Part shown: in pieces, positions 1-58,279 of the stretch
How positions within the stretch are numbered: the first letter of the stretch is position 1
Layout of the letters: each line of letters begins with the position of its first letter
DNA from: Lysobacter sp. yr284
GTDB taxonomy: Bacteria; Pseudomonadota; Gammaproteobacteria; Xanthomonadales; Xanthomonadaceae
NCBI RefSeq assembly: GCF_900107375.1
Contig: NZ_FNPT01000001.1
Location: forward strand, 1 to 64,000
DNA length: 64,000 nucleotides
Direction of reading: 5' to 3'
The notes under the pieces: generated by a model
Database searches by the model: none
What the model was told of the DNA's origin: nothing
The model's input: the letters and a program-made list of their open reading frames with translations, nothing else
Made by a program: the position numbers and the translations under genes

Positions 1-1344
1 GCCGGCCCCGGCCAGCGCGTGGGCCTGTGCCTGCCGCGCGGCTGCGACCTGCTGGTCGCGCTGCTGGCGATCCTGAAGACCGGCGCGGCCTATGTGCCGG
101 TCGATCCGCATGCGCCCGCGGCTCGGCGCGGCTTCATTCTCGAAGACAGCGGCGTCTGCCTCAGCGTCAGCCAGCGCGCGCTGGCCGTCGAGCTGCCCGG
201 CACGGCGTTGTGCCTGGACGATCCGTTCACCCGCGCGCAGCTCGATGCCGTGGTGCCGGGCGAGTTGCCTAAGGTACCAGTCGATGCGCCGGCCTATCTG
301 ATCTATACCTCCGGCTCGACCGGCACGCCCAAGGGCGTGGTGGTCACGCACCGCAACGTCGAGCGGCTGTTTACCGCAGCTACGCAGGACGGCCATTTCG
401 CGTTCGACGAACACGACGTGTGGAGCCTGTTCCACTCGCATGCGTTCGACTTCGCGGTGTGGGAACTGTGGGGCGCGTGGCTGTATGGCGGCCGCGCCGT
501 GCTTGTGCCGGAAGCGGTCTGCCGGCAGCCCGATGCTTTCCTTGATCTGCTGGCCGAGCAAGGCGTCACCGTGCTCAATCAGACGCCCTCGGCGTTCTAC
601 GCGCTGCAGTCGCAGGCGGTGCGACGCGAGGTTCCGCTGAGCGTGCGCACGGTAGTGTTCGGCGGCGAAGCCTTGGAGCCCTCGCGCCTGCAGCCCTGGC
701 GTGAGCGCTACCCGAGCGCCGAGTTGGTCAACATGTACGGCATCACCGAAACCACGGTGCACGTCAGCTTCCACCGTCTCAGCGACGAAGACCTGCAAAG
801 CCCGGCCAGCCGCATCGGCCGCGCGTTGCCGGACCTCGCAGTGCACGTGCTCGACGATGCCGGCCAACCGGTACCGTTGGGCGTGGTCGGCGAGTTGGTG
901 GTCGAAGGCGACGGTGTCGCCCAAGGCTATTGGCAACGACCGGAACTGACCGCCGAACGTTTCGTCGCCATCGATGGCCAACGCCGCTACCGCTCCGGCG
1001 ACCTCGGCCGCTACCACGCCGACGGCTCGCTGGAGTACCGCGGCCGCGGCGACGATCAGGTCAAGCTGCGCGGCTACCGGATCGAGCCGGGCGAGATCGC
1101 GGCCAAGCTGGCGGCATTGCCGCAGCTCGTCGATGCCGCAGTGACGGTCGAAGGGCAGGGCGAAGGCGCGTGGCTGATGGGTTACGCAGTCGCCGCGCCG
1201 AACGCCGAACCCGACCCGCAGGCGCTGCGCGATGCACTGCGTGCGGTGCTGCCGGACTACATGCTGCCGCGTCAGATCCAGCTATTGCCGGCGCTGCCGC
1301 TGACCGCCAACGGCAAGCTCGACCGCAAGGCCCTGCCCAAGCCG
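1..1344 (+). repeat. Direct repeat copy 1: Thr adenylation domain
   Basis: This segment matches 17360-18703 with a constant offset of 17359 and no indel that I could find. The two translations differ at about 14 of some 448 residues by eye. Similarity stops sharply at the A-T linker after KALPKP. The left edge lies outside the window, so the repeat may be longer. Confidence 0.93.
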
Positions 1345-1649
1345 CAGACCGAGGACCGCGACGAAGGCGCGCTCGAATCGGCCAGCGAACAACGCCTGGC
1401 CGAGCTGTGGCGACAGTTGCTCGGCGGCGAGCGGCCTGGACGCCATGCGCATTTCTTCGCCCGCGGCGGCCACTCCTTGCTGGTGGTGCGCCTGGCCGAG
1501 GCCATCCGCGTCGAGTTCGCGGTGGCCGTGCCGCTGAAATCCCTGTTCGAGCAGCCGCGGCTGGCCGAACAGGCGGCCTTGCTCGACGCCCTCGCCGCAC
1601 CGCAATCGGCGCCCGAACAAGCGGACGAAACCTGGGAAAGCTTCGAACT

Positions 1650-1653
<4 letters not shown>
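1..1653 (+). CDS. NRPS, C-terminal part: A(Thr)-T (5' end outside window)
   Basis: The reading frame is open from base 1, so the gene begins upstream and only about 550 residues are seen. They form most of an adenylation domain (YTSGSTGTPKG near nt 302, NMYGITETT near 730, NGKLDRKALPK near 1310) followed by a peptidyl carrier domain with GGHSL (phosphopantetheine Ser codon at 1474). The pocket residues by GrsA numbering read D-F-W-N-V-G-M-V-H, the threonine pattern (known family code DFWNIGMVHK). The protein ends in an acidic, aromatic tail (ETWESFEL) directly before the stop; such tails can dock onto the next synthetase, whose N-terminus looks like a docking domain. The stop overlaps the next start as ATGA. 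The A domain is almost identical to the last A domain of the locus at 17360-18703. Substrate assignment is inference from motifs. Confidence 0.93.
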
Positions 1654-11245
<9,592 letters not shown>

Positions 11246-11249
<4 letters not shown>

Positions 11250-14200
11250 CCGCTGCTTCCGAACTGCGCGCGATCGCCGAGCGCGCGATCAACCTGCCGG
11301 CGCACAAACAGGACCTGTTCCTGGCGCGCCTGGACGAACGCGGCCTGGACGCGGCGCTGCTGCCGATCGTGGCCCGCGCCGATACCGACGCGGCCACGCC
11401 GCTGTCGTTCGCCCAGCGCCGCATGTACCTGGTCGAGCGCATGTCGGCGCAGGCGCTGTACAACCTCGCCTCGGGCCTGGAATTGCACGGCGAACTGGAC
11501 CTGCAGGCGCTGCGCGGGGCGCTGGACACGATCGTCGCGCGCCACGCGGTGCTGCGCACGGTGTATCGCGAAGTCGACGGCGTCCCCCAGCAACAGGTGT
11601 TGGCACACGCACCGGTGGCGCTGGAGGAGCGCCGCTTGCAAGACGATGCCGAGCGGCAGGTACGCGAGCGGCTCGACGCGATGCAGGCGCAGCCGTTCGC
11701 GCTCGACGCCGAAGCGCCGCTGCGGATCGAGCTGTACCGGCTCGGCGAGCGTCGCTGGGCGCTGCTTTGGTGCGTGCACCACATCGCCTTCGACGCCTGG
11801 TCGGAAGGGGTGCTGCAGAACGAACTGGTGCAGGCCTATTCGGCCCTGGCCGACGGCCGCGCGCCGGCGCTGGCGCCGCTGTCCGCGCAGTACGCCGACT
11901 ATGCCGCCTGGGAAGGGCTGTGGCAGCGCAGCGCCGGCTTCCGCCGCCACAGCGATTACTGGCACGATGCGCTGGCGGGCGTACCGGATCAATTGTCGCT
12001 GCCGTTCGACCACGCCCGGCCCGCCGCTTCGGCGCGCGGCCACGCCGGCGCCGAAGCCCGCCGCACGCTGCCGCCGGCGCTGACCCGGCGTCTGTACGAA
12101 CTGACCGCGAACCTGCTGCCGGGGCGCGAGACCACCCTGTACACCTTGTTGCAGACTGCGTTCGCCTGGTTGCTGGCGCGCTACGGCAACACCGGCGACC
12201 TGTGCATGGCGACCTCGATCGCCAACCGCCAGCGCGCCGAACTCGAGCCGCTGATCGGCTGCCTGGTCAACACCCTGGCGATCCGCCACCGGGTCGAGGC
12301 TGCGCTGCGTTTCGACCAGGCCGCAGCCGCCGCCGGCGACACCATCACCGCCGCGTTCGAACATGCGCAGGTGCCGTTCGAACACGTGCTGGAGCGGCTG
12401 GACATCGCCCGCGACGGCGCCCGCCCGCCGCTGTGCCAGGTATTGTTCGTGCTGCAGAACGTACCCGACGCCGGCGCCCTGGCCTTGCCGGGGCTGAGCA
12501 TCGCGCCGCTGGCGCAGGAACAGCGGCTGGCGCGCTTCGACCTCAGCCTGCGCATCGCCGAGCGCCGCGACGAGGCTCATCTGGGCCTGCATCTGGAGTA
12601 CAGCACCGAGCTGTTCCAGGCGCCGACGGTCGAACGCCTGCTGGCCGACTTCGAGGCGGTGCTGGAACAGGTCTGCGCCGCGCCGCAGATGCGCTTCGCC
12701 GATGTCGTGCTCGCGCATGAGGCGCGGGGCGAAACGGTCGAGCTGGTAGCCGCCGCCACCGCGCAATCGCTGCTGTGGCAGGCGCCGGCACAGGCGGTCG
12801 CAGTAGAAGAGGGCGATGCGAGTTGGACCTACGCGCAGCTGCGCACGGCGGCCGGGCGGATCGCCGCGGCGCTCGATGCGGCGGGAACGTCGCCGGGCGC
12901 GCACGTGGCACTGTGCCTGCCGCGGACGTTCGCGCAACTGGCGGCGATGGCGGCGGTGTGGCATCGCGGCGCGGCGTGGTTGCCGCTGGACCCGCAGCAT
13001 CCCGATGCTCGGCAGATCGCCGTGCTTGAGGACAGCGGCGCGCAGGTCGTGATGGGGTGGGGCGCTGCGCCGGCGTGGCTGCCGGCATCGGTGCGCTGGC
13101 TCGATGCCGAATCGGTCCTGAGCGACACCGAGCCGTATGCGGAGCCTTCGCTTGTGGATGTAACGGCCGATACGCCGGCCTACCTGATCTACACCTCTGG
13201 CTCGACCGGCACGCCGAAGGGCGTAGTGGTGAGCCAGGGCAATCTGGCACACTACGTCGCCGGCGTGCTGCCGGTGCTGGGGCTGAGCGAAGACGCCTCG
13301 TTGGCAACGCTGTCCACGGTCGCGGCCGACCTCGGCTTCACCGCCTTGTTCGGCGCGTTGCTCAGCGGGCGCCGGGTGCGCCTGCTGCCGGCGGAACTCG
13401 CGTTCGATGCGCAAGCATTGGCCGCGCATCTGCAGGCGCATCCGGCGGATTGCCTGAAGATCGTGCCGTCGCATCTGGCCGGCTTGCTCGCCGCGGGCGG
13501 CGGCGCATCGGTATTGCCGCGCGAATGTCTGGTGACCGGCGGCGAAGCCTTGACCGGCGCGTTGGTCCAGCAAGTGCGCGCGCTCGCGCCGTCGCTGCGG
13601 ATCGTCAACCATTACGGCCCGACCGAAACGACCGTCGGCATTCTGACCTGCACCGTGCCGGACGAATGGCCGGCAGAGCAGGGCATCCCGGTCGGCCACC
13701 CGCTGGCCGGCAACGAGGCCTGGGTACTGGACCGGTTCGGCTTGCCGGCGCCGGTCGGCGTGACTGGCGAGTTGTATCTGGGCGGCGGCAATCTGTCGCT
13801 GGGATACTGGCAGCGTGCAGAGCAGACAGCCGAACGCTTCGTCGCTCATCCGTTCGCGCCGGGCCGCACGCTGTACCGCAGCGGCGACCTGGCCAAGACC
13901 GATAGCGAAGGCCGGATCGTGTACCTCGGCCGCGGCGACCACCAGGTCAAGATCCGCGGCTACCGCGTCGAACTCGGCGAAGTCGAGCAAGTGCTGGCGC
14001 AGCTGCCCGGCATCGAAGTCGCCGCGGTACTGGCGTTGCCGGGCGCCAACGGCGTCCTGCAACTAGGCGCTTGCGTGCAAGGCACGCTGGATGGCATCGC
14101 CGAAGCGTTGGCGCAAAGACTGCCCGAATATCTGTGCCCGACCCGCTGGCGCATCGTTGAATCGATGCCGCGCCTGGGCAACGGCAAGATCGACCGGCAA

Positions 14201-17200
14201 GCGCTGGCCGAGCTGCTGCAACAGGATGAGACTGATCCCTCGGCCGAAACCGCCGAGGAAGCCCCGGTCAACGAAGTGCTGCGCGAGCTGTGGCAGAAGC
14301 TGCTGGGCCGCGCGCATATCGGCGCGCACGAGAATTTCTTCGCCCTGGGCGGCGATTCGATCCTGAGCCTGCAGGTCGTGGCGCGGGCGCGCCAGGCCGG
14401 GCTGGCGCTGATGCCGCGGCAGCTGTACGACCATCCGACCCTGGCCGCGCTGAGCGCGCAGGTGCAGGCGACCGCGCCGGCGCCCGCCGCACCCAAGCCC
14501 GCACCTGAGGCCGAACAAGCCTTCGGCCTGACCCCGATCCAGCACTGGTTCTTCGAACAGGCGCTCGACGAACCCGCGCACTGGAACATGTCGGTCTGCA
14601 TCCGCATCCCCGAGCGCCTGCAGCCGGCGGCGCTGGAAACCGCCGTGCGCGCCGTGGCCGAACGCCATCCGATGCTGCGCGCCCGCTTCGCCCGCGACGC
14701 GGCCGGCGCCTGGCAGCAGCGCATCGCCCCTTGGCTGCCCGCGCAGTTCGCCCATCTCGAAAGCGATGCGGCGGGCCATGCCGCATCGATGCGCGCCTGG
14801 CAAGCCAGCCTGGACCTCGGCAACGGGCCGCTGTTCCGCGCGCTCTATCTCACCGCCGCCGATGCCGCGGACGGACGTCTGTTGCTGGTCGCCCACCATC
14901 TGCTGATCGATGGCGTGTCCTGGCGCGTGCTGCTGGAGGACCTGCAGCGCGCCTATCGCGACGCCGCCGACGGCCGCGAGCCGACGTTGGCGTCGCCGCC
15001 GGCCGCGTTCAATCAATGGCAGCGGCATCTGCACGAAGGCCTGTCGCCGCAGCGCCTGCAGCAATGGCGCGAGTACTGGGCGCGGCCGCAGGCCGGCGAC
15101 TACGCGCGCCTGCCGTTCGCCGCCAGCGACAACCGCGAGTGCGATGCCGCCAGCGTGCACGCGCGGCTCGACCGCGCGGCCACCGCGCGCTTGCTCGGCG
15201 AGGATACGCGCGCACTGCGCACTCAGCCGCAGGAACTACTGCTGGCCGCGCTGGCGACGGCGCTGGCCCGACTGTGCTGCGCCAACGACATCCTGATCGA
15301 ACTGGAAGGCCACGGCCGCGAGCCGGTCGACAGCGAGCTGGACCTGTCGGAAACCGTCGGCTGGTTCACCAGCCGTTATCCGGCGCGGCTGCGCCTGCCC
15401 GCCGGCGCCGCGCCGGCTGCGACCCTGACCGCGGTCAAGGACCAGTTGCGCGACATTCCCGATCGCGGCCTGGGCTACGGCGTGCTGCGCTATCTGCACG
15501 GCGAGCTCGCGCAGGCGCCGGTGCCGCAGGTCTGCTTCAACTACCTCGGCCAGGTGCGTTCGGGCGAGGCCGGCGGCTGGGACTTCGCCGGCGGCGACGA
15601 CGGCGGCAGCCGCGCGCCGGGCACCCGCCGCAGCCATCTGCTCGATGTCGGCGCCCTCGTCGTCGACGGCGAGTTGAGCGTGGACTGGACCTATCCCGCC
15701 GACGCGGTCGGCCGCGACGCGATCCAGGCACTGGCCGACGCTTTCATCGCCGCCTTGCGGGCGCTGCTGGCGTTGGACGGCCGCGACGCCGCCGCTCCCA
15801 CCCGCAGCGACCTGCCGCTGGCCGGGCTCGACGATGCCGGTTTCGACCGCCTGATCCACCGCTACCCGGACCTGGAAGACGCCTATCCGGTCTCGCCGCT
15901 GCAGCAGGGCCTGTTGTTCCATGCCCTGGATGCCGGCGAGCAGCCGCTCTACATCAACCAGAGCACGGTCACCCTCGAAGGCGAGTTCGATGCCGACGCG
16001 TTCGCGCAGGCGTGGACGCTGGCGCTGGCGCGGCATCCGATCCTGCGCACCGGCTTCGCCTGGGACGGCCTGGAGCGGCCGCTGCAGGTGGTGCGCAGCC
16101 GCGCGTCGCTGCCGCTGCGCCGGCACGACCTGCGCGAGCGCGACGAGGCCGGCGTCGCCGCGGCCCTGGCCGAAATCCAGCGCGAGGACCGCACCACGCC
16201 GTTCGCGCTCGACGAAGTGCCGCTGATGCGGGTGCGCCTGCTGCAGTGCGCGCCGCAGCGGCATATCGTGGTGTGGACGCGCCACCATCTGATCGTCGAC
16301 GGCTGGAGCTCCGGCCTGCTGATCCAGGAGGTGATGGCCGGCTACCGCACGCTCGCTCGCGGACAACGCCCGTCACTGCCCGCCGCGCCGCCGTATCGCG
16401 ATTATCTGGGCTGGCTGGCGCGGCAGGACCGTGCGCGCTCCAGCCAATGGTGGTCGCGCGAGTTGAGCGCGCTCGACGCACCGGCGCGGCTGCCCGAAGC
16501 CGCCGCTCCGCAGCCCGGCTTCGCCCATGTGCAACGCGAACTCGATGCGACGGCAGCGGCCGCGCTGGCCGCCGCCCACGCGGTGACGCTGGGCACCGTG
16601 GTGCAGGGCGCGCTGGCGCTGGTGCTGCGCCGCTATTACGGCCGCGACGATTTCTGCATCGGCCTGACCAGTTCCGGCCGTCCGGCCGAATTGGCCGGGG
16701 TGGAACGCATGCTCGGCGTGTTCATCAATACCTTGCCGCTGCGCTTGCGCATGGGCCGCGCGCAAGCCGAGCCTGCGCAATCGCCGGGCGCATGGCTCGC
16801 GCAACTGCAGCGGCACGGCCTGGACCTGCGCGAACACGAACACCTGCCGCTGGCCGAGGTGCAAGCGCTGTCCGGCCTGCCGGGCGGCGTCTCGCCGTTC
16901 GACACATTGCTGGTGTTCGAGAACTATCCGGCGGCAGCTGGCGAGGCCGGCGGCGAATTGCGCGTGCGCGAACACGAAGGCGCGGACCTGACCCATTACC
17001 CGCTGACCCTGGCGATGCTGGCGGACGAATCCAGGCTGCACGTGCAAGCCGTGCTCGACCGCAGCAAGCTCGATGGCTGGCTGGTGGAGCAACTGCTGGA
17101 GGACCTGGCGTTCGTGCTGCGGCAATTGCCGTCGTTGCAACGCCTGGACGACTTGCCGCTGCTGCCGTCGCAGACCCGTTCGGCGGCGTGGACCGGACGC

Positions 17201-19819
17201 GCCAGCTATCCGAGCACCGGCAGCCTGGTCGCGCGCTTCGCCGAAGTCGCCCGGCGCCATCCCGCGCGTATCGCAGTCTCGACCGAAGACGGCGAACTCG
17301 ACTACGCCGCGCTCGACCGGCGGTCTTCGCAACTGGCGACGCTGCTGATCCGCCAAGGCGCCGGCCCCGGCCAGCGCGTGGGCCTGTGCCTGCCGCGCGG
17401 CTGCGACCTGCTGGTCGCGCTGCTGGCGATCCTGAAGACCGGCGCGGCCTATGTCCCGGTCGATCCGCATGCGCCGGCGGCGCGGCGCGGGTTCATTCTC
17501 GAAGACAGCGGCGTCTGCCTCAGCGTCAGCCATCGCGCCTTGGCGGTCGAGCTGCCGGGCACGGCGTTGTGCCTGGACGATCCGTTCACCCGCGCGCAGC
17601 TCGATGCGGTAGTGCCGGGCGACTTGCCCGAAGTACCAGCCGACGCGCCGGCCTATCTGATCTACACGTCCGGCTCGACCGGCACGCCCAAGGGCGTGGT
17701 GGTCACGCATCGCAACGTCGAGCGGCTGTTTACCGCAGCTACGCAGGACGGCCACTTCGCTTTCGACGAACACGACGTGTGGAGCCTGTTCCACTCGCAT
17801 GCGTTCGACTTCGCGGTGTGGGAGTTGTGGGGCGCGTGGCTGTACGGCGGCCGCGCGGTGCTGGTGCCGGAAGCGGTCTGCCGGCAGCCCGATGCGTTCC
17901 TTGATCTGCTGGCCGAGCAACGCGTCACGGTCCTCAACCAGACGCCCTCGGCGTTCTACGCGCTGCAGTCGCAGGCGGTGCGACGCGACGTTCCGCTTCA
18001 AGTGAGAACAGTGGTGTTCGGCGGCGAAGCCCTGGAACCTTCGCGCTTGCAACCCTGGCGCGAGCGTTATCCGAGTGCCGACCTCATCAATATGTACGGG
18101 ATCACCGAAACCACGGTACACGTCAGCTTCCACCGTCTCAGCGCCGAAGACCTGCAAAGCCCAGCCAGCCGCATCGGCCGCGCGCTCCCGGACCTCGCGG
18201 TGCACGTGCTCGACGATGCCGGCCAACCGGTACCGTTGGGCGTGGTCGGCGAGTTGGTAGTCGAAGGCGACGGCGTCGCCCAAGGCTATTGGCAACGACC
18301 GGAACTGACCGCCGAACGTTTCGTCGCATTCGACAGCCAACGCCGCTACCGCTCCGGCGACCTCGGCCGCTACCGCGCCGACGGCTCGCTGGAGTACCGC
18401 GGCCGCGGGGACGATCAGGTCAAGCTGCGCGGCTACCGGATCGAGCCGGGCGAGATCGCAGCGAAGCTGGCGGCATTGCCGCAGCTCGTCGATGCCGCAG
18501 TGACGGTCGAAGGGCAGGGCGAAGGCGCATGGCTGATGGGCTACGCAGTCGCCGCGCCGAACGCCGAACCCGATCCGCAGGCGCTGCGCGAGGCGTTGCG
18601 CGCGGTGCTGCCGGACTACATGCTGCCACGCCAGATCCAGCTATTGCCGGCGCTGCCGCTGACCGCCAACGGCAAGCTCGACCGCAAGGCCCTGCCCAAG
18701 CCGGACGCGGCGCAAGCGGCCGACCGGCGCATGCCGCGCAATGCGCTGGAATGGCAGTTGCTGGACGCCTGGCGCCAGGTGCTGGCGCGCAACGACTTCG
18801 GCATCGACGACGATTTCTTCGCCCTCGGCGGCCATTCGCTGCTCGCCACCTCGCTGCTCAGCCGCCTGCGCCGCCTGCGCGGCCAGGACCTGCCGCTGGC
18901 GCTGGTGTTCCAGCATCCGACCATCGCGCGCATGAGCGAGCACCTGGGCGCGCAGCGCGCCGGCGCCAACGCGCTGGTGCGCCTGCGCGGCAGCGGTGCG
19001 GCGACGACGCGGCTGTTCTGCCTGCACCCCGGCGGCGGCCACACCCTGGCCTATGCGCCGGCGCTGGAGCGCCTCGATGCGAACGTAGCTGCGTTCGGCA
19101 TCAACTCGCGCATGCTGGTCGACAGCCAGTGGCGGCCGGCCAGCCTGGAGGCGTTACTCGACGACTATCTGGCGCTGATCCGCGCCGAGCAGCCCGAAGG
19201 CCCGTACGCGCTGCTGGGCTGGTCGCTCGGCGGCACGCTCGCTTACGCCCTGGCCGAGCGGCTGGAGCGCGCCGGCGACGCGGTCGCCTGGGTCGGCCTG
19301 ATCGACTGCTTCGGTTGGCGCGAGAAGGAACGCGTCGCCGATCCCGCCCTGCACGGGCTGCGCTGGTTGCCGGAGTACTTCGCCTATCTGGAACCGGCCC
19401 AGCGCGAACCGCTGTACGCGCAGCCGCAGCGGCTGGCCGAACTGGACGCCGCGCTCGCGCACGCGGCCGACGAGGCCGCGCGCCAGGCCGTGCTCGCCGC
19501 GCACTATGCCGCGCTGGCGGGGCAGGGCGTGGCCGACGCCGAACGCCACCTGCTGCAGCTGCGCCTGTTCCGCAGTTGGGACGAGGTGCTGGCGGGTTAC
19601 CGACCCGGCCGCCTCGCCGCGCCGGTCGCGCACTGGCAGGCCGCCGACAGCGTGGCCCTGTTCGGCGGCAACGCCGACGCCTGGCAGGCGCACGCCGCGG
19701 TCGAGCAGACCGTGCTGGCGGGCGACCACTACTCGATCATGCAGTCGCCGGCCCTGGCCGACGCCGTGGCCGCGGCCGCGCGCCGCGCCCGCGCCGCAGA
19801 GGTGTCCCCATGTCGCTGA
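11246..19819 (+). CDS. NRPS, terminal: C-A(Asp)-T-E-C-A(Thr)-T-TE
   Basis: A 2857-residue terminating synthetase. Domains in order: condensation (HHIAFDA at 178); adenylation with pocket D-L-T-K-V-G-H-V-G, the aspartate pattern; carrier with LGGDSI (Ser 1038), the form that usually precedes epimerases; epimerisation domain (LTPIQHWFFEQ start, HHLLIDG at 1217); a condensation domain with YPVSPLQQGLLFHAL and HHLIVDG (1680), as expected for a D-accepting C domain; adenylation with D-F-W-N-V-G-M-V-H (Thr); carrier GGHSL (Ser 2531); and a type I thioesterase with GWSLGG (nucleophile Ser 2660). The predicted end of the peptide is therefore D-Asp-Thr, released by hydrolysis or cyclisation. The aspartate could be hydroxylated by an enzyme outside the window. 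The ATG overlaps the preceding stop as ATGA, and the stop overlaps the exporter start by 10 nt. Confidence 0.95.
17360..18703 (+). repeat. Direct repeat copy 2: Thr adenylation domain of last module
   Basis: Second copy of the 1.34-kb segment at 1-1344, inside the terminal NRPS gene. Most differences are silent third-position changes or conservative ones (for example Glu/Asp in PSAELVN versus PSADLIN). Identity is lost just after KALPKP at the A-T linker. Such tracts are known in NRPS genes from recombination or gene conversion between A domains; that origin is an inference here. Confidence 0.93.
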
Positions 19820-21474
19820 TCCGCCTGTTGTTCCGCAGCCATCGCGCGTTCATCGCCCTGGCCCTGTTGCTGAGCCTGGTCAGCGCCGCGATCGGCGTGG
19901 CCATGATCGGCTACGTCGACCGGCTGCTGGCGCAGGTCGGCGACGTGCGCGGGCTGGCCGGCTTCGCCGCGCTGCTGGTGGCCTTGTTCGTGTTCGGCAG
20001 CGCCGCGCAACTGGCCATGTCCACGCTCGGCCACAAGGTGGTCTACCGGCTGCGCCAGACCATGGTCAAGCGGGTGCTCGACACCGACGTGGAGCGGCTG
20101 GAAGCGGTGGGGCTGGCGCGCATCCTGGCCACCCTCAACGGCGACATCAACACCATCACCCTGGCCTTCGCCAGCCTGCCGTCGGTGGTCTACGGCATGA
20201 CCCTGACCCTGGGCGGCTTCGCCTACCTGGCGTGGCTGTCGCTGCCGCTGTTCGCCGCCTGCGCGCTGATGATCGCCGTGGCGGTGGGCTGCAGCGTCGC
20301 GCTGATGGCGCGCACCCGGCGCGAGGCGCGCCTGGCCCGCGACATGGAGGACCATCTCTATCGCCACTACCAGGCCGTGGTCGAGGGCCGCAAGGAGCTG
20401 GCCCTGAACCGCGACCGCGCCCGCAGCGTGTACGAACACGAGTTCGAACCCGACGCCCGCCGCAGCCGCGACCACGAGATCCGCACCGACATCTACAACG
20501 GCCTCAACCAGAACTGGATCAACACGATCCTGCTGGCCACCATCGGCCTGGCGTTCTTCCTGGTCGGCTATCTCGGCTGGGCCAGCCCGGGCACGGCCGC
20601 GACCTTCGCCTTCGCGCTGATGTTCCTGCGCACGCCGATGGCCGGCATGGTCGGCTCGGTGCCGAGCCTGATCGCCGGCAGCGTGGCCCTGGCCAAGGTC
20701 GACAGCCTGCAGTTGGCGCCGCACCGCGAAGGCTTCGGCCACGACGACGCGGCGCTGCCGGCGGACTGGTCGCGCCTGCAGCTGCGCGGCGCCGCCTATC
20801 GCTACGCGGCGGCGACCCCGGAGGAACCGGGCTTCGGCGTCGGCCCGATCGACCTGAGCCTGCGCCGCGGCGAGCTGTTGTTCGTGATCGGCGGCAACGG
20901 CAGCGGCAAGAGCACGCTGATGCGGGTGTTGTCGGGCCTGTACCGCCCGCAACAGGGCGCGCTGTGGCTGGACGACACCGAGATCGACGCCGCCCGCACG
21001 CCGGCCCTGCGCCGCCTGTTCGCCACGGTGTTTTCCGATTTCCACCTGTTCAACCGCGTGCTCGGCCCGGACGGCGGCCACCTCGGCGACGAGCGCGCGC
21101 TGGCGCTGCTGACCCGGCTGGAACTGGCGCACAAGGTCTCGATCGGCGCCGGCGTGCTGTCGGACACGCGCCTGTCGCAGGGCCAGCGCAAGCGCCTGGC
21201 GTTGTTGCTGGCCTGGGCCGAGCAACGGCCGATCCTGCTGCTGGACGAATGGGCGGCCGACCAGGACCCCGGATTCCGCCGTTTCTTCTACGAGCAGTTG
21301 CTGCCGGAACTGCGCGCGGCCGGCAAGACCATCGTCGCGGTCAGCCACGACGACCGCTATTTCCACCTCGCCGACCGGGTGCTCAAGCTCGACGGCGGCC
21401 AATTGGCCGAATACGACGGCGACAGCGCCGTGGGAGGGCGAACGGCGCATGCGCCGGCGCAGGCGCTGGGGTAA
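19810..21474 (+). CDS. Cyclic-peptide/siderophore export ABC transporter (PvdE/SyrD family)
   Basis: A 554-residue fused permease-ATPase of the inner membrane. The N-terminal half (about 10-295) has six hydrophobic segments. The C-terminal half has Walker A GGNGSGKST (361-369), signature LSQGQ (455-459), Walker B ILLLDE (475-480) and the switch His 513 (VSHDD). Length and layout match the PvdE/SyrD family, which exports non-ribosomal peptides or their precursors to the periplasm. The start overlaps the NRPS stop by 10 nt and the M28 peptidase gene follows after 12 nt. It is therefore the likely exporter of the encoded peptide. No specific symbol is given because the product is unknown. Confidence 0.9.
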   Translation: MSLIRLLFRSHRAFIALALLLSLVSAAIGVAMIGYVDRLLAQVGDVRGLAGFAALLVALFVFGSAAQLAMSTLGHKVVYRLRQTMVKRVLDTDVERLEAVGLARILATLNGDINTITLAFASLPSVVYGMTLTLGGFAYLAWLSLPLFAACALMIAVAVGCSVALMARTRREARLARDMEDHLYRHYQAVVEGRKELALNRDRARSVYEHEFEPDARRSRDHEIRTDIYNGLNQNWINTILLATIGLAFFLVGYLGWASPGTAATFAFALMFLRTPMAGMVGSVPSLIAGSVALAKVDSLQLAPHREGFGHDDAALPADWSRLQLRGAAYRYAAATPEEPGFGVGPIDLSLRRGELLFVIGGNGSGKSTLMRVLSGLYRPQQGALWLDDTEIDAARTPALRRLFATVFSDFHLFNRVLGPDGGHLGDERALALLTRLELAHKVSIGAGVLSDTRLSQGQRKRLALLLAWAEQRPILLLDEWAADQDPGFRRFFYEQLLPELRAAGKTIVAVSHDDRYFHLADRVLKLDGGQLAEYDGDSAVGGRTAHAPAQALG

Positions 21475-21486
21475 GGTCGGCGCCCT

Positions 21487-23820
21487 ATGACCAACACGCC
21501 CTCGCTTCCGTCCCCGCCCGGCGCGCTCGCCCGCGGCCTGGCCCTGTTGGCGCTGCTGGCCTGCGCCGCCGTCTCCTGGCTGGACGTGCGGCCGCCGCCG
21601 GCGCGCGGCGATGGCGCCGCGGCGAGCGAGTTCTCCGCCGCGCGCGCGATGCGCCACCTGCCGTCGATCGCATCCAGGCCGCACCCGGTCGGCAGCGCCG
21701 AGAACGCGCGGGTGCGCGCATACCTGCTCGCGCAACTGCAGGCGCTGGGCCTGCAGCCGCAGGTGCAGACCGCGTTCGTGGCCAAGCCCGACCGCTGGGG
21801 CGTGGTCGCCGGCACCGTCCACAACATCGTCGCGCGCCTGCCCGGGCGCGAGCCGGGCCGCGCGGTGGCCCTGATCGCGCACTACGATTCGGTGACCACC
21901 GGTCCCGGCGCCGCCGACAACGGCGCCTCGGTCGCCGCGATCCTGGAAACCCTGCGCGCGCTGCGCGCCGGCGCGCCGCTGCGCAACGAGGTGATGGTGG
22001 TGTTCACCGATGCCGAAGAAGCGGACCTGCTCGGCGCCGAAGCCTTCGTCGCCCAGCATCCGTGGGCGCGGCGGATCGCGCTGGCGCTGAACTTCGATTT
22101 CCGCGGCAACCGCGGCCCGTCCATGCTGTTCGAAACCAGCGCCGGCAACGGCCGGCTGGTGGCGCAGTTCGCCGCGGCGGCGCCGCACCCGATCGGCGGC
22201 TCGCTGGGCTACGAACTGTACCGGCGCATGCCCAACAGCACCGACTTCAAGGTGTTCAAGCACGCCGGCATCGCCGGGCTCAACTTCGCCGCGATCGAAG
22301 GCCACACCCACTACCACACCCAAATCGACCGGATCGATCGCTTGCAGCCCGACAGCGTGCAGCATCTGGGCGAGAACATGCTCGCCGCGACGCGCAGCTT
22401 CGGCGAATCGGACCTGCAACGCATCGACGGCGAAGACCGGGTGTTCTTCAACGCGCCGGGCCTGGGCATGCCGAACTACGGCGCGGGCTGGGCGCTCGCG
22501 TTCACCGCGCTGGCGGTCGCGCTGAGCATGGTCCTGCTCGCGGCGGGGCTGCGCGGCGGCGCGATCCGCGGCGCCGGCGTGGCCCGCGCCTTGCCGGTCT
22601 TCGCGCTCGGGCTGGTAGCGGCCGGCGCGGCCTGCCAGGCGGTGTGGATCGCGGTCGGCTGGCTGCATCCAGGCTACGCGACGTTGCTGCAGGGCGACAC
22701 CTACAACAGCCATTGGTACCTGCTTGCGTTCCTGGCCCTGGCCGCGGGCGTGCAGACCGCGCTGCTGGCCGCGACGGCGCGCTGGTGCAGCGCGCTGGAG
22801 GCCGGATTCGGCGCGATGCTGGTGTGGACCGCACTGCTGTGCTGGGCCGCCGCGACCGTGCCGGGCGCCGGCTATCTGCTGTTGTGGCCGCTGCTGGCGG
22901 TGCAGGCCGGCACGTGGGCGAGCCTGGCGCGGCCGGGCCGCGGGCTGTCGGCGAACGCGCGGCTGGCCGTGCTGACCGTCGCGGCGATCCCCGGCGTGGC
23001 GCTGTTCGCGATGGTGCTGTGGGCGCTGTTCGTGGCGCTGACCCCGTCGTTGGCGTTCGTCGCCGGCGTCGCGGCCATGCTGCTGTTCGGCCTGTTCGCG
23101 CCGTTGCTGGCGCAGATCGCGGGCAGCGGGGCAGGGCGCTGGGTCCCGTGGCTGGCGGCGCTGGCGTTGCTCGCCGTCGGCTCGGTCACCGCCGGCTTCG
23201 ACACCGCCCATCCGCGCCAGAACAGCTTGCTGTACGCGCAGGATGGGGCCAGCGGCAAAGCCTGGTGGATTTCGCGCGACGACCGGCCCGACGCATGGAC
23301 CGGCCGCTACCTCGGCGCATCGCCGACGCAGCGGACCATGCCGGAATTCTTCGGCCCCGATTCCGATTCGTTCTGGGCCGGCGCGACGCCGGCGGTTCTG
23401 GCGCCGCCGACGCTTCGGCTCGACGCGCAGCGCAGCGACGCGCACGTGCGCACGCTCGAACTGACCCTAGCCTCCGCGCGCAACGCGCCGCGGCTGATGT
23501 TGAGCGTGGACGGCGCGAGCGTACTGCGCGCCTCCATCGCCGGCGTCGAGTACCCGAACGCGGAGGCGGACGGCAGCGAAGAATGGATGCTCGACCTGTA
23601 CGGACAAGGCGACGCGCCGCTCCAGATCGAGCTGCAGCTCAAGGCCGGATCGGCCTACGCGATCCGCCTGGTCGATGCGTCGTACGACCCCACGATGATG
23701 CGCGTGCCGCGCCCCGAGGGCATGGTCGCGCAACCGTTCTCGCTCAACGGCGCGGCGCTGGTCCGCAGCGAGTTGCGCGGCGGCGCGGACGCGGCCGCCG
23801 CGGACAAGGCCGGGCCTTGA
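21487..23820 (+). CDS. Membrane M28 family metallopeptidase
   Basis: A 777-residue protein with an N-terminal hydrophobic anchor (about 17-33). A zinc aminopeptidase domain follows (about 50-330), with AHYDSV (His 132), ADNGAS (Asp 144), TDAEE (175-178) and a late GHTHYHT metal-binding motif. Several transmembrane helices (roughly 340-560) precede a C-terminal extracytoplasmic domain. This is the architecture of the ERMP1-like M28 group. The domain is expected on the periplasmic side. Its place 12 nt after the exporter suggests co-transcription with the NRPS genes, so it could trim or inactivate the peptide, or merely be carried along. Its role in the pathway is inference; the family call is firm. 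Confidence 0.87.
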   Translation: MTNTPSLPSPPGALARGLALLALLACAAVSWLDVRPPPARGDGAAASEFSAARAMRHLPSIASRPHPVGSAENARVRAYLLAQLQALGLQPQVQTAFVAKPDRWGVVAGTVHNIVARLPGREPGRAVALIAHYDSVTTGPGAADNGASVAAILETLRALRAGAPLRNEVMVVFTDAEEADLLGAEAFVAQHPWARRIALALNFDFRGNRGPSMLFETSAGNGRLVAQFAAAAPHPIGGSLGYELYRRMPNSTDFKVFKHAGIAGLNFAAIEGHTHYHTQIDRIDRLQPDSVQHLGENMLAATRSFGESDLQRIDGEDRVFFNAPGLGMPNYGAGWALAFTALAVALSMVLLAAGLRGGAIRGAGVARALPVFALGLVAAGAACQAVWIAVGWLHPGYATLLQGDTYNSHWYLLAFLALAAGVQTALLAATARWCSALEAGFGAMLVWTALLCWAAATVPGAGYLLLWPLLAVQAGTWASLARPGRGLSANARLAVLTVAAIPGVALFAMVLWALFVALTPSLAFVAGVAAMLLFGLFAPLLAQIAGSGAGRWVPWLAALALLAVGSVTAGFDTAHPRQNSLLYAQDGASGKAWWISRDDRPDAWTGRYLGASPTQRTMPEFFGPDSDSFWAGATPAVLAPPTLRLDAQRSDAHVRTLELTLASARNAPRLMLSVDGASVLRASIAGVEYPNAEADGSEEWMLDLYGQGDAPLQIELQLKAGSAYAIRLVDASYDPTMMRVPRPEGMVAQPFSLNGAALVRSELRGGADAAAADKAGP

Positions 23821-23910
23821 ACCCATGCGCCGCCGGTTCGCATTGATCGCGTTCGTGTCGCGCCGGATTCGGCGCGATGCCCGCCGCGCATGCGGCCGGG
23901 CGCGAGCGCG

Positions 23911-24594
23911 CTAGGCCTCGTCCGCCCCATCGGCCGCCTGCAGCAGGTAGCCCAGGCCGCGCATCGCGTGGATCTCGATGCCGGCCGGCGCCAGCGTGCG
24001 CCGCAGCCGGGAAATATGCGATTCCAGCGTGTTGGATTCGATGTTGTCGTCGAAGCCGTACACCGCCTCCTGCAGCTTGGCCCGCGATACCGTCCTGCCG
24101 GCGCGCAGGCACAGCGCCTCCAGCACCAGCAATTGCCGGCGCGGCAGGTTCAGCTGGCTGCCGTGCAGGCTGGCGCAGCGGTCGGCGAAATCGAACTGCA
24201 GCGCGCCCAGCGTCATCGTCGGAATCTGCTGCTGCGCAGGGCGCCGGCACACCGCGCGGATGCGCGCCAGCAATTCGTTCACGTCGAACGGCTTGGTGAT
24301 GTAGTCGTCGGCGCCGGCGTCCAGGCCCTGGATGCGGTCGCCGACCTGGTGGCGCGCGGTCAGGATCAGTACCGGCAGGCCCGGCTGCGCGCGCCGCGCC
24401 AGCGGGATCAGCGATACGCCTTCGCCGTCGGGCAGCTGCCAGTCCAGGATCAGCGCGCGGTAGTCGGCGTCGCTGAGCGCGCGCCGCGCCGCGCCCAGGT
24501 CGGCGGCGACGTCGAGCACGATGCTGTGCGCGGCCAGCGCGCTCTTCAACGCCTGCGACAGGCCTTGATCGTCTTCGACCAGCAGGATGCGCAT
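23911..24594 (-). CDS. OmpR-family response regulator
   Basis: A 227-residue regulator. The receiver domain has the acidic pair in VEDD (8-9), phospho-acceptor Asp 51 (LILDWQLPDG) and Lys 101 (ITKPFD). The C-terminal winged helix contains the SNTLESHISRLRRTL recognition region. It resembles QseB/BasR/PhoP-type regulators. The start ATG lies 2 nt after the stop of the sensor kinase, so the two form one transcript. With the RND efflux pair directly upstream on the same strand, it probably controls efflux or envelope stress. Reading frames that fuse it to upstream sequence are artefacts of the GC bias. Confidence 0.92.
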   Translation of the reverse strand: MRILLVEDDQGLSQALKSALAAHSIVLDVAADLGAARRALSDADYRALILDWQLPDGEGVSLIPLARRAQPGLPVLILTARHQVGDRIQGLDAGADDYITKPFDVNELLARIRAVCRRPAQQQIPTMTLGALQFDFADRCASLHGSQLNLPRRQLLVLEALCLRAGRTVSRAKLQEAVYGFDDNIESNTLESHISRLRRTLAPAGIEIHAMRGLGYLLQAADGADEA

Positions 24595-24596
24595 GC

Positions 24597-25961
24597 TCAG
24601 GCCCCCCGCGCCGGCGCCGGCAGCAACGGCAGTTGCACGCAAAAGCGCGCGCCGCCCTGCGCCGAGCGCGACACCCGGATGCTGCCGCGGTGCCGGGTCA
24701 CCACTTCGCGCGCCAGGTGCAGGCCCAGGCCGCTGCCCTGGGCGGCGGGGTTGAGCCGGTAGAACGGCGAGAAGATCTGCGGATATTCCTCCTCGGCGAT
24801 GCCCGGGCCGGCGTCGGACACGCTGATGCGCGCCTCGCGCGACACGCTCAGTTCGATCTCGCCGGCGCCGCCGCCGTGGGTCATGGCGTTCTGCAGCAGG
24901 TTCATGATCACCCGCTGCAAGGCGCCGACGTCGCCGGACACGTACACCGGCTGCGCGGGCGCGTCGAACGAGAACGCATACCCGGCCTTGACCAGCAGCG
25001 GCGCGATGTCCTCGCCGACTTCGCGGCAGACCTGGACCAGGTCGAGGGTGTCGTTGGCGATGAGCCCGCGGTCGACCCGCTGCAGGTCCAGCAGTTGTTC
25101 GGAGATGTTCTCCAGCCGCGCGATGTCGCTGAGCAGGCTGGTCTTGGCCGGCCCGGCGGCCAGCGCGGCGGCGCGCGCGCGCACGATCGCGATCGGCAAG
25201 CGCAGCTCGTGGGCGGCGTTGCCGAGGAAGCGGTCGCGCGCCTCGGCGGCGTCCCAGATCCGGTCCAGCGCCTGGTTGAACGCGTCGATCAGCGGCTTGA
25301 GTTCGGAGGGCACCGCGGCGACGTCGAGATGGCGGCTGCGGCGGTTCATGTCGACCCCGCGCGCCTGCTCGGCGACCTTGCCGATGCCGCGCAGGCCGCG
25401 GCGCACGATCCACGGCACCAGCAGCAGGATCACGATCGCCACCGGCAACGCCATCCACAGGCTGACGAAGTAGAACAGCGGCGCGAACAGGCCGATCACG
25501 CCTTCCTCGGGCACGCCGCCGACGATGATCCGCAACCGCCCCCAATCGCGCTCGGCGACGACCAGGGTCGCGGCCAGGCGCGGGTCGGGGCTGCGCAGGT
25601 CGGAATCGCTCAACAGCGGCAGCATCGCCACCACCGGCCGGTACTCGGGCGGCAACTTGCCCCAGGTCAGGGTGTGTCCGGCCTCGTCCACCGCCGCCAG
25701 CCAGGCGGTTTCCGGCGCTTCGCGCAGCCGCGGCGGCAGCCGCGCCGGGTCCAGGGCGAGCACGCCGTTGCGGCGCTCGATGGCCTGCGCCGCATCGTCG
25801 GCGGTGTCGCGGTAGATCGTGCGCGATTCGGGCTTCCACAGCACCACGCACAACACGGCGAACAGCGCGAAGATCAGCGACACCACGCCCAGGCCCACGC
25901 GCCAGGCGATGCGCCGGCTCAACGACGGCGCGCGGAAGAAGGACGGGATCGGGTTACGCAT
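24597..25961 (-). CDS. Two-component sensor histidine kinase
   Basis: A 454-residue membrane kinase. The first transmembrane helix lies at about 20-45, a periplasmic sensor region of about 120 residues follows, and the second helix is near 170-195. Then come a HAMP-like linker, the phospho-acceptor box NAAHELRLPIA, the N box (LLQNAMTHGG), the G1 box (DAGPGI) and the G2 box (GSGLGLHLA). It is the partner of the adjacent OmpR-type regulator. It starts 131 nt downstream of the RND pump stop, so it may share that transcript or have its own promoter in the gap. The sensed signal cannot be read from the sequence. Confidence 0.92.
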   Translation of the reverse strand: MRNPIPSFFRAPSLSRRIAWRVGLGVVSLIFALFAVLCVVLWKPESRTIYRDTADDAAQAIERRNGVLALDPARLPPRLREAPETAWLAAVDEAGHTLTWGKLPPEYRPVVAMLPLLSDSDLRSPDPRLAATLVVAERDWGRLRIIVGGVPEEGVIGLFAPLFYFVSLWMALPVAIVILLLVPWIVRRGLRGIGKVAEQARGVDMNRRSRHLDVAAVPSELKPLIDAFNQALDRIWDAAEARDRFLGNAAHELRLPIAIVRARAAALAAGPAKTSLLSDIARLENISEQLLDLQRVDRGLIANDTLDLVQVCREVGEDIAPLLVKAGYAFSFDAPAQPVYVSGDVGALQRVIMNLLQNAMTHGGGAGEIELSVSREARISVSDAGPGIAEEEYPQIFSPFYRLNPAAQGSGLGLHLAREVVTRHRGSIRVSRSAQGGARFCVQLPLLPAPARGA

Positions 25962-26092
25962 GCTCGCTCCGGCGACGGCTGCAACGCGCAAAGCGTCGCC
26001 GGCATGATAGTCGCAATCGCGCCGGGCCCGGCCGCCGCAGGCCCGGCCTTGCGCGCCCGCGGCGGTGCGCGCGCAGGCGGCCGCGCGCGGCG

Positions 26093-29000: not shown

Positions 29001-29206
29001 ATCTCGCGGGTGATCTGGGTCTCGACCTCCGACGGCGCCGCGCCGGGCAGGGCGACGGCGACCTGCACGATCGGGAACGACACGTCCGGGAACAGCTTGA
29101 TCGGCAGCGCCTTGTAGCCGGCCAGGCCGGCGAGCAGCAAGGCGATGAACAGCACGCTGACCGGGATCGGGTTCTTGATCGACCAGGCCGAAACGCCGAG
29201 CTTCAT
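26093..29206 (-). CDS. RND efflux pump, inner-membrane transporter (AcrB/MdtB-like)
   Basis: A 1037-residue proton-driven pump. It has the family layout: TM1 at the N-terminus (IKNPIPVSVLFIALLLAGLA), a large periplasmic porter domain, TM2-6, a second porter domain and TM8-12. The proton-relay aspartates are visible in TM4 (LVIGILVDDAIVEIEN). Length is normal. The adaptor gene stops 1 nt before this start, so the pair is coupled. No outer-membrane TolC-type gene lies nearby, so the pump probably uses one encoded elsewhere. Substrates cannot be predicted, although the neighbouring NRPS locus makes a role in peptide tolerance possible. Confidence 0.93.
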   Translation of the reverse strand: MKLGVSAWSIKNPIPVSVLFIALLLAGLAGYKALPIKLFPDVSFPIVQVAVALPGAAPSEVETQITREIEGAVASIAEVDHVSSTVSLGLSSTTVEFVVGADPQKATDEVRAAIDGVRATLPRGIEEPVVRRFDIDQMPILTYAVSAPAMSDVELSWFIDDTVAREVIGADGVAQVARVGGVEREINVILDPARLEALGLGAPQVNDALRGFSTDIGGGSARVGGHQQTVRVLNAAQSVESLRQLVIPTGDGRTVRLGEVAQVGSGGGERSSLALLNGAPVVGFQVMKTKAASDVDVEAATIEAVDELARRHPGLSFTRIVSSAENTRHSFDATVHTLIEGMLLAALVVLAFLRDWRATAIAAVAMPISLIPTFAIMAAMGFSLNMITLLALTLVIGILVDDAIVEIENIQKRIQLGETPFQAAFEGSDAIGLAVTATTLSIVVVFLPVSFLSGFVGQFFFEFGITVAVAVLSSLVVARMLTPLMCAYFLAPQAQAHARKPFRGGYRRALDWALDHRWISLALGVAIFVGSLFLAAALPTGYTPPTDNGIVQISMEGAPGATLDDLRASTQRLTRELHKRGDVKTVFATLATDAAGSSNITVLLREDRALTTQEFQADIRASMLSIPDVRLGYGPAGQGGSTVVQVLLSSEDGAALEQAARTLERQMRGLPELANVHEVTPRPGTELIVRLKPAEAARLGVTPEAVAALARVATLGDVDANSAKFNAGTERLTVRVRLDDAARGDLAVIGALRVPTAAGGSVPLSAVADLGFQAGAARIERYDRERRAMVEAELHEVSLGQAMARINALPILRNLPPGVTNPAYGQGENQMELFASFGLALAAGIFMIYAVLVLLFRSFFKPITILAALPLSLAGAFLGLLLGGAELGLPALIGLLMLMGLAAKNSILLVEFAIEAERDGASQHQALVLACRERARPIVMTTFAMAAGMIPTALGLGEGSEFRVPMALAVIGGLISSTVLSLVLVPVVYEFVEDAELWLTPKLARLITHNPAEPDAQARAGASPGSGAGAGDAAERA

Positions 29207-29207
29207 C

Positions 29208-39012: not shown

Positions 39013-39016
<4 letters not shown>
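38138..39016 (-). CDS. entB: Isochorismatase with aryl carrier domain
   Basis: A 292-residue bifunctional protein. Residues about 1-215 are the isochorismatase, which makes 2,3-dihydro-2,3-DHB from isochorismate: [13 protein letters not shown] with the catalytic Asp, Lys in TKWRYSAF, and [17 protein letters not shown]. Residues about 218-292 are an aryl carrier domain with GLDSIRMM, phosphopantetheine on Ser 251. It receives DHB-AMP from EntE and presents DHB to the condensation enzyme. Its ATG overlaps the entE stop. Length agrees with EntB (about 285 residues). Confidence 0.94.
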
Positions 39017-40670
<1,654 letters not shown>

Positions 40671-40674
<4 letters not shown>

Positions 40675-58050: not shown

Positions 58051-58252
58051 GACATCCCCTTCTCGGTCGTTGGAATCGGCTCCGTGCTGGAGCGATCTCG
58101 TCCGCAATGCCGCGTCCGATGATTTCCACAACGGGACGCGCGGGGGGCCTACCTACCCCGCCGGATCACTTTCAGACTCGTCCTAGATGCCGATGTGTGC
58201 GCACGCAACGCCGCGGCGACACACTCGTCGCGCCCGCGCGCCGCACACAAAC

Positions 58253-58279
58253 GAAAACGGGAGCCCCGAGGGGCTCCCG
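58253..58279 (-). terminator. Rho-independent terminator of the second S8 protease gene
   Basis: On the minus strand a 10-bp perfect stem CGGGAGCCCC / GGGGCTCCCG with a 2-nt loop as drawn is followed by TTTTCGTTTG. It starts 30 nt after the protease stop. Confidence 0.9.

What the first reader, a model, noticed from the sequence alone, without database searches (positions are those of the whole stretch)
1..19819. NRPS assembly line for an unrecognised peptide ending Thr-X-Pro-X-D-Asp-Thr
Reading the pocket residues module by module gives Thr, a Glu239-type pocket, Pro, a second Glu239-type pocket, Asp (followed by an epimerase) and Thr, then a thioesterase. I know no described Lysobacter peptide with this order: lysobactin and WAP-8294A2 have no such Pro/Asp/Thr tail, and tripropeptin- or plusbacin-type peptides differ as I recall them. 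The front of the line lies outside the window, so length and any fatty-acid start are unknown.
Basis: partly seen in the sequence, partly recalled or inferred. Interest (0 to 1): 0.75.

Follow-up and report, generated by a model that had tools for sequence, protein, structure and literature searches.

The report
Lysobacter ten-module peptide siderophore synthetase
These genes are the back half of a ten-step enzyme assembly line in a bacterium of the Lysobacter group that most likely builds an iron-scavenging peptide, perhaps gripping iron with three hydroxy-aspartate residues and nothing else, which would be an unusual way to bind iron.

Summary
Window 1-19819 holds Thr, X, Pro, X, Asp(+epimerase), Thr modules and a thioesterase. 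The contig begins at window base 1, inside a near-identical internal repeat. I found the front on contig C20 of the same genome, and the whole line in two relatives, one of them L. enzymogenes ATCC 29487. It has ten modules: Asp, ?, D-Arg-like, D-Asp, Thr, Lys-like, Pro, Lys-like, D-Asp, Thr, then TE.

In front of it stand a siderophore-type TonB receptor, a PepSY_TM gene, a type II thioesterase and a TauD hydroxylase; behind it stands a peptide exporter. The TauD groups with enzymes from formomarinobactin/marinobactin-type clusters. The genome's one match to the Orn/Lys N-hydroxylase family is a general flavin monooxygenase, so three beta-hydroxyaspartates would supply exactly six iron ligands.

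Best reading: a new beta-hydroxyaspartate peptide siderophore, possibly using hydroxyaspartate alone. Chemistry is untested. A published table probably already lists the cluster as an 'unknown NRPS' of L. enzymogenes. Genes for the known siderophore lysochelin lie separately at 35165-41762.

The parts
1..1653 (+). 3' part of NRPS gene 2: adenylation (Thr, DFWNVGMVHK) and T domain of module 5; the rest of gene 2 is on contig C20 (26386-32654) plus a gap of about 4.4 kb
1650..11249 (+). NRPS gene 3: TubC_N docking, then C-A-T x3 (modules 6-8: Lys-like, Pro, Lys-like)
1662..1805 (+). TubC_N docking domain of gene 3
   Evidence: Pfam PF18563
3114..4868 (+). A domain of module 6, code DIESAGTVAK (basic, Lys-like)
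6243..8000 (+). A domain of module 7, code DVQFAAHVVK (Pro)
9369..11093 (+). A domain of module 8, code DIESVGTVVK (basic, Lys-like)
11246..19819 (+). NRPS gene 4: C-A(Asp)-T-E-C-A(Thr)-T-TE (modules 9 and 10)
12656..14383 (+). A domain of module 9, code DLTKVGHVGK (Asp)
14516..15799 (+). Epimerization domain of module 9 (HHxxxDGxSW and EGHGR motifs; E clade of the C-domain tree)
17129..18862 (+). A domain of module 10, code DFWNVGMVHK (Thr); 17360-18703 is 94% identical to window 1-1344
19046..19816 (+). Terminal thioesterase domain, GWSLGG at 19217
   Evidence: Pfam PF00975
19810..21474 (+). Peptide exporter: over the cut-off of TIGR01194 cyclic peptide ABC transporter (409 bits, cut-off 286) and of the YojI-type model NF007813 (647, cut-off 604)
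21487..23820 (+). M28-family peptidase behind the exporter; a similar ORF sits there in G019 and G005; role unknown

Best explanation
The locus makes and handles a beta-hydroxyaspartate peptide siderophore. Four NRPS proteins with ten modules build roughly Asp-X-D-Arg-D-Asp-Thr-Lys-Pro-Lys-D-Asp-Thr, perhaps N-acylated at the first Asp. The stand-alone TauD enzyme hydroxylates carrier-bound Asp. The TE releases the peptide, linear or as a lactone. The ABC protein behind gene 4 exports it. The TonB receptor brings the ferric complex back, and the PepSY_TM protein probably helps reduce or release the iron. With no hydroxamate or catechol gene in the cluster, the most economical coordination is three beta-hydroxyaspartates (positions 1, 4, 9), six oxygen donors in all. 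Shown: gene content, module order, homologies, no recognisable N-hydroxylase in the genome. Inferred: hydroxylation of all three Asp, acylation, iron binding, transport. My estimate is about 0.85 that it is a siderophore and about 0.55 that all three Asp are hydroxylated and bind iron.
For: Receptor above the TIGR01783 siderophore cut-off (300.7 against 223.5), one of 8 such genes in the 6.25-Mb genome. A PepSY_TM gene follows it, one of 6 over the cut-off. Among the 45 loci of a capped named-genome scan, the TauD's best relatives outside Lysobacteraceae are 53-57% identical and mostly Pseudomonas (P. graminis and others) and Marinobacter; the tree sets it apart from the own genome's two other scored TauDs. 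P. graminis FmbI is assigned Asp hydroxylation in formomarinobactin (PMC13037486, section read). Modules 4 and 9 have the A(Asp)-T-E-C layout of the formomarinobactin and marinobactin-type Asp modules. Peptide exporter. No Orn/Lys N-hydroxylase: the one PF13434 match is a general flavin monooxygenase. Fur-like sites before the receptor and the TauD, kept in three genomes; the TauD one also in L. pythonis. The same contig carries TonB/ExbB/ExbD, heme oxygenase and FecI/FecR-type genes upstream.
Against: No chemistry. TauD and beta-hydroxy-Asp also occur in antibiotics (tripropeptin, plusbacin), and no NCBIfam model names this TauD: its four matches are far under their cut-offs. The exporter family is not siderophore-specific: the genome's only other TIGR01194 gene over the cut-off sits by another NRPS at C40. 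The Fur-like sites match only 13-14 of 19 bases; 20 shuffles of C20 reached 11-13 (13 once), and another 13/19 site lies inside a gene. Module 1 has tandem T domains and no E domain, yet is followed by a C domain of the clade that elsewhere follows E domains. Module 2's substrate (DMLVLGGVIK) is unknown. There is no FAAL starter as in formomarinobactin. The Lys reading of the DIES pockets rests on a recalled code, and Arg against Orn at module 3 is not settled.
Confidence: 0.8

Rival explanations
1. A siderophore of mixed or incomplete hydroxyaspartate type: only the Asp residues followed by E domains (4 and 9) are hydroxylated, and iron is completed by another group, such as an N-terminal acyl or aryl cap, the unknown residue 2, or a modified Lys.
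For: Module 1 differs from modules 4 and 9 (T-T, no E). The first C domain is divergent; it joins a PKS-fed C domain of this genome in one tree (support 85, weak) and the FAAL-fed C domains' wider group in another (94/85). Residue 2 is unidentified. Potashchelin, variochelin and lactuchelin pair one or two OHAsp with hydroxamates.
Against: No recognisable N-hydroxylase. A catechol cap from the lec genes is unlikely to be required: in PMC9410377 Table 1 the tssF-type NRPS cluster occurs without the entE-type cluster in CX06 and C3, and the entE-type without the tssF-type in M497-1, although both occur in CX03 (that the tssF-type cluster is this one is my inference).
Confidence: 0.3
2. A cationic lipopeptide antibiotic of the tripropeptin/plusbacin kind, whose beta-hydroxyaspartates bind calcium or a lipid target and not iron.
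For: Lysobacter makes such peptides, and the plusbacin candidate cluster has TauD enzymes. This peptide would carry three basic residues. An exporter of the same family stands by another NRPS of this genome.
Against: Siderophore-type receptor and PepSY_TM beside the synthetase. The TauD groups with the formomarinobactin-type enzymes, not with the TauD of this genome's WAP-like locus. Residue order differs from the tripropeptin and lysocin orders quoted in PMC9581180. Separate E domains here, where the plusbacin candidate cluster has dual C/E domains.
Confidence: 0.1
3. Assembly artefact or decayed cluster with no functional product.
For: The contig breaks inside the cluster at repeat boundaries.
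Against: Whole and colinear in complete genome G019 and in G005, with all four genes open there; the gene pairs compared between strains are 87-94% identical by protein (gene 2 was not compared with G005).
Confidence: 0.03

Closest known systems
Formomarinobactin / marinobactin-type clusters (Pseudomonas graminis, Marinobacter)
   Same: Stand-alone TauD 54% identical, A(Asp)-T-E-C layout, TonB siderophore receptor, exporter, TE
   Different: Those have six modules with a FAAL starter, Dab, Ser and two N-hydroxyornithines plus an N-hydroxylase. Here there are ten modules, no FAAL, no recognisable N-hydroxylase, three Asp and basic residues.
Potashchelins, variochelins, lactuchelins (lipopeptide OHAsp siderophores)
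   Same: NRPS lipopeptide siderophores with Asp hydroxylated by TauD enzymes or domains (passages). The Arg-position pocket of the Variovorax cluster (DAEDLGAITK) resembles module 3.
   Different: They combine one or two OHAsp with hydroxamates, and TauD is wholly or partly a fused domain. None has the present residue order.
Tripropeptin / plusbacin
   Same: Lysobacter lipopeptides with beta-hydroxy-Asp; two TauD enzymes in the plusbacin candidate cluster
   Different: Tripropeptin C is quoted as alloThr-Pro-Pro-Arg-OHAsp-Ser-OHPro-OHAsp; antibiotics, not siderophores.
Lysochelin (lec cluster)
   Same: Siderophore of the same genus; lec-type genes lie 15 kb from the NRPS in this window at 35165-41762
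   Different: Two 2,3-DHB on spermidine, made by an NRPS-independent pathway (PMC11233812 passages).
'Unknown NRPS, tssF' cluster of L. enzymogenes CX03/CX06/C3 (PMC9410377 Table 1)
   Same: Probably the same cluster: TssF lies about 14 kb downstream in G019
   Different: Listed there only as unknown; that paper guesses enterobactin and pyochelin for the strains' siderophores. Its table also gives a locus range in L. antibioticus 76, which it repeats for another cluster, so the match is not certain.

Membership tests
Beta-hydroxyaspartate peptide siderophores (NRP metallophores) | NRPS with one or more Asp-loading modules | tested here: met
   Three Asp codes (modules 1, 4, 9) in G019 and G005; in the window's own genome modules 1 and 9 are read and module 4 falls in the gap
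Beta-hydroxyaspartate peptide siderophores (NRP metallophores) | Siderophore-type Asp beta-hydroxylase (TauD fold) in the cluster | tested here: met
   TauD Pfam match, 54% identity to the P. graminis enzyme, groups with those enzymes. By homology only; the published IBH/TBH profiles were not available and no NCBIfam model reached its cut-off.
Beta-hydroxyaspartate peptide siderophores (NRP metallophores) | TonB-dependent siderophore receptor in the cluster | tested here: met
   TIGR01783 300.7 bits over the cut-off of 223.5, 1 of 8 in the genome; whether it takes this product is untested
Beta-hydroxyaspartate peptide siderophores (NRP metallophores) | Iron-repressed expression (Fur) | tested here: inconclusive
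   13-14/19 Fur-like sites before the receptor and the TauD, conserved; shuffles reached 13 once in 20
Beta-hydroxyaspartate peptide siderophores (NRP metallophores) | Product binds Fe(III) and feeds the producer | not testable with these tools
   needs chemistry
Marinobactin/formomarinobactin family | FAAL starter and N-hydroxyornithine modules with an N-hydroxylase | tested here: not met
   No FAAL-like domain before C1 and no DGE-type Orn codes; the only PF13434 match is a general flavin monooxygenase
Tripropeptin/lysocin peptides | Published residue order | tested here: not met
   Predicted order against the orders quoted in PMC9581180
Lysochelin (lec) | 2,3-DHB biosynthesis and condensation genes make the product | tested here: not met
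   These genes form a separate set at 35165-41762 and are no part of the NRPS line

The most novel reading that the evidence does not exclude
The product is a siderophore that binds iron with three beta-hydroxyaspartates alone (hexadentate, no hydroxamate, no catechol) and would therefore be strongly photoreactive. The synthetase got its second Asp-Thr unit by an internal duplication of an A(Asp)-T-E-C-A(Thr) block that still undergoes gene conversion.
Probability: 0.45. Interest if true: 0.65.

Novelty: new variant of a known kind. Interest (0 to 1): 0.5.

Why it matters
[quoted passage not shown] This locus is a strong candidate for a second one, present in L. enzymogenes ATCC 29487. If all three Asp are hydroxylated it would be an all-hydroxyaspartate siderophore; a phrase search for siderophores with three beta-hydroxyaspartates found no paper (six wordings, open-licence papers only). 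Many siderophores that bind iron through OHAsp are cleaved by UV-A light and reduce the iron to Fe(II), which bears on iron sharing in soil and on biocontrol strains.

Tried and rejected
Rejected: C37, C4, C18, C22, C40, C15, C42, C35 and C29 as the missing front of the line, on the stretches fetched: the few 31-base words shared with the window were internal, and no match of 500 bases or more at 80% identity to the G019 or G005 clusters was found. Not every end of every contig was fetched. C20 was found from its ORF lengths and proved by synteny.

My first reading of module 3's code as DTLD... was wrong; the fuller alignment gives DTEDVGAISK (compare). Searching papers for literal codes gave 0 hits, but that search used the misread DTLDVGAISK; the corrected code was not searched.

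N-hydroxylase check: the single PF13434 match is over Pfam's cut-off (28 bits against 21.3), so I looked at it. The 442-aa protein is a general flavin monooxygenase (Pyr_redox_3 111 bits, PF13434 36 bits over positions 90-210 only; no NCBIfam model over its cut-off among the 25 shown; none of 49 matched solved structures is named as an ornithine or lysine hydroxylase).

Interface-domain idea (hydroxylase recruited by a degenerate C domain): the Variovorax cluster has such a degenerate C-like domain before its Asp module (NPLAAD instead of HHxxxD), but none of the Lysobacter C domains aligned looks like it. The paper I recall as defining interface domains is not held and a search found no other, so the point stays open. 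A docking signal at the C-terminus of the TauD was looked for by eye and not seen. Gene 1's N-terminus resembles TubC_N by eye, but Pfam gave no hit.

Chance of the receptor neighbourhood: 8 over-cut-off receptors in 6.25 Mb make proximity to one given cluster a matter of a few per cent (my arithmetic). TonB-PepSY pairs also occur elsewhere in the genome (C16, C24, C29), so the pair counts as one observation, not two.

Rows dropped: TauD tree, 23 of the 45 named loci used, 22 left out by my choice (33 rows in all); G005 left out of the C-domain tree (55 of 68 domains); A domains of 250 aa or less or 380 aa or less not coded.

Full report
What is in the window. Bases 1-19819 carry three colinear NRPS ORFs. 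The window is the first 64 kb of contig C32 of its genome, so the synthetase is cut by a contig end.

Why the front is missing. Window 1-1344 is 94% identical to 17360-18703, and the first 95 bases are identical. The last 64 bases of contig C20 are identical to window 12846-12909, and its last 150 bases are about 97% identical to 12760-12909. So both contig ends fall inside two copies of one repeat, A(Asp)-T-E-C-A(Thr). The stretch between them, about 4.4 kb in G019, has no better match in the own genome than the module 9 copy at 77%. I infer that the assembler merged the two copies. In G019 the two copies are 85% identical over 6 kb; in G005 they are 82% and 93% identical over two stretches of 3.0 and 1.7 kb.

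The whole line. C20 aligns to the complete genome G019 along its full length, immediately upstream of the window's stretch, at 91-92%. G019 and G005 carry the line unbroken. G005 is Lysobacter enzymogenes ATCC 29487: the named locus L083 lies wholly inside the G005 stretch. Of 20 genus genomes searched with gene 3, only these two and the own genome match it over its whole length. Module order and codes from own and G019/G005 sequence: 1 Asp (DLTKxGHVGK), 2 unknown (DMLVLGGV[IL]K), 3 Arg-like with E (DTEDVGAISK), 4 Asp with E, 5 Thr, 6 DIES[AL]GTVAK, 7 Pro, 8 DIESVGTVVK, 9 Asp with E, 10 Thr, TE. Module 4 is read from G019 and G005 only. A related line, 61-70% identical in the parts held, lies on two contigs of L. 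pythonis, likewise broken at a shared Asp-module end, with codes DLTKIGHVGK, DMLILAAVIK, DTEDVGAITK, DIESVGSVAK, DVQFTAHVVK and DIESIGTVVK.

How sure are the residues. The same extraction recovered the published residue order of formomarinobactin in P. graminis, and Asp, Ser and Pro pockets and a basic pocket at the Arg position in a variochelin-like Variovorax cluster (structures). Module 3 resembles that last pocket (DAEDLGAITK). It also shares DTED with two pockets of this genome's WAP-like cluster (DTEDMGYVDK, DTEDMGLVDK), which I recall as ornithine modules; so Arg is favoured over Orn, not proved. DIES..V pockets resemble the Lys pocket of bacitracin synthetase (DAESIGSVCK, recalled, no call).

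Stereochemistry. In a tree of 55 C-like domains the domains after modules 3, 4 and 9 fall in one clade with the E domains of the reference clusters (100/100). The C domains after them fall in a second clade, of the kind that accepts D residues (100/99). The C domain of module 2 is also in that second clade, although module 1 ends in two T domains with no E. I leave that unexplained.

What surrounds it. On C20, in order: TonB receptor 13593-15836, PepSY_TM 16203-17819, type II thioesterase (minus strand, ends near 17758), TauD (ATG read at 18574) to 19635, NRPS gene 1 19706-26389, gene 2 from 26386. Behind gene 4: exporter 19810-21474 and M28 peptidase 21487-23820. Upstream on C20: TonB, ExbD, ExbB, heme oxygenase, a large TonB receptor with an STN domain, FecR, an ECF sigma factor and another TonB receptor. 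Receptors over the TIGR01783 cut-off number 8 in the genome, PepSY_TM genes 6. Of two exporters over the TIGR01194 cut-off, the other stands by a different NRPS at C40, so the exporter alone does not argue for a siderophore.

The hydroxylase. In 297 family genomes, 25 had a TauD match at E <= 1e-60, and 4 (own, G019, G005, G145) were 81% identical or more. In the tree of 33 rows the Lysobacter enzymes fall in an unresolved group (support 81) with the Pseudomonas/Marinobacter enzymes and with Bordetella ansorpii and Pokkaliibacter enzymes, and apart from the TauDs at C32:1192529 (WAP-like locus) and C22:1819 of the same genome. That the P. graminis DSM 11363 enzyme is FmbI is my assignment, from the species and the matching module order. 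Formomarinobactin's FmbI is assigned Asp hydroxylation by its authors.

No other chelator. The Orn/Lys N-hydroxylase family gave one match in the genome, 28 bits against a cut-off of 21.3 and partial. The 442-aa protein behind it is a general flavin monooxygenase. Catechol genes seen here are the lec-type set at 35165-41762 (2,3-dihydro-DHB dehydrogenase, siderophore-interacting protein, condensation, isochorismatase/carrier, DHB-AMP ligase and chorismate-binding proteins), which fits the six-gene lysochelin cluster described in PMC11233812 (passages).

Regulation. The best Fur-like sites in C20 include one about 63 bases before the TauD ATG (18511) and one 65 bases before the receptor (13528). 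Both are conserved in G019 and G005, and the TauD one in L. pythonis (14/19). Shuffles gave maxima of 11-13. This is suggestive only.

Start of the chain. There is no FAAL. The first C domain has an intact HHIVADF motif. In one tree it sits with the C domain of a PKS-NRPS of this genome (support 85), not with the first C domain of the WAP-like cluster; in the other it sits in a wider group with the FAAL-fed C domains (94/85). I take acylation as likely but unproved.

Literature. PMC4657364 (passages) reports CAS activity without complete known siderophore clusters in Lysobacter. PMC9410377 (passages with Table 1) lists an 'Unknown NRPS, tssF' cluster in CX03, CX06, C3 and L. antibioticus 76; TssF lies about 14 kb beyond this cluster's end in G019, so for L. 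enzymogenes it is probably the same. Searches combining Lysobacter, siderophore and hydroxyaspartate terms (2 papers, and 12 of 17 listed) and phrases for three hydroxyaspartates (0) listed no paper on this product that I could recognise. The library holds open-licence papers only, and Reitz 2019 is not held.

Verdict. A real, conserved, ten-module NRPS inside an iron-uptake locus, best read as a beta-hydroxyaspartate siderophore system. It works like the formomarinobactin systems but fails their defining FAAL and hydroxamate features. Its special point is three Asp modules and no other recognisable chelator.

Noticed in passing
35165-41762 (-): Six-gene lysochelin-type (lec) catechol siderophore set; two siderophore systems within 45 kb in this genome.
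   Followed up: partly
C20:22784 and 22997 (NRPS gene 1): Tandem T domains after the first Asp module, no E domain, yet the next C domain belongs to the D-accepting clade.
   Followed up: partly
1-1500 and 12656-18862: Duplicated A(Asp)-T-E-C-A(Thr) block; copies 82-93% alike within relatives, suggesting gene conversion, and the likely cause of the contig break.
   Followed up: yes
21487-23820: M28 peptidase behind the exporter, with a similar ORF there in G019 and G005; could trim or recycle the peptide.
   Followed up: no
23911-30287 (-): Two-component system, RND pump and membrane fusion protein next to the cluster in own and G019, not at that place in G005.
   Followed up: no
C15:194327-198155 and C42:117698-121526: Two contig ends share a 3.7-kb NRPS stretch at 99.7% identity: another repeat-caused break in a different NRPS cluster.
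   Followed up: no
L084/L142/L143 (Lysobacter pythonis): A 2.9-Mb genome keeps a related form of this large NRPS line on two contigs.
   Followed up: partly
C30, L128:1015-2343 (-): A 442-aa flavin monooxygenase about 3 kb from a lone condensation domain (C30:107200-108126): perhaps a small separate NRPS cluster.
   Followed up: no
56362-59964 (-): Two neighbouring ORFs with similar N-termini (secreted-protein-like paralogs).
   Followed up: no
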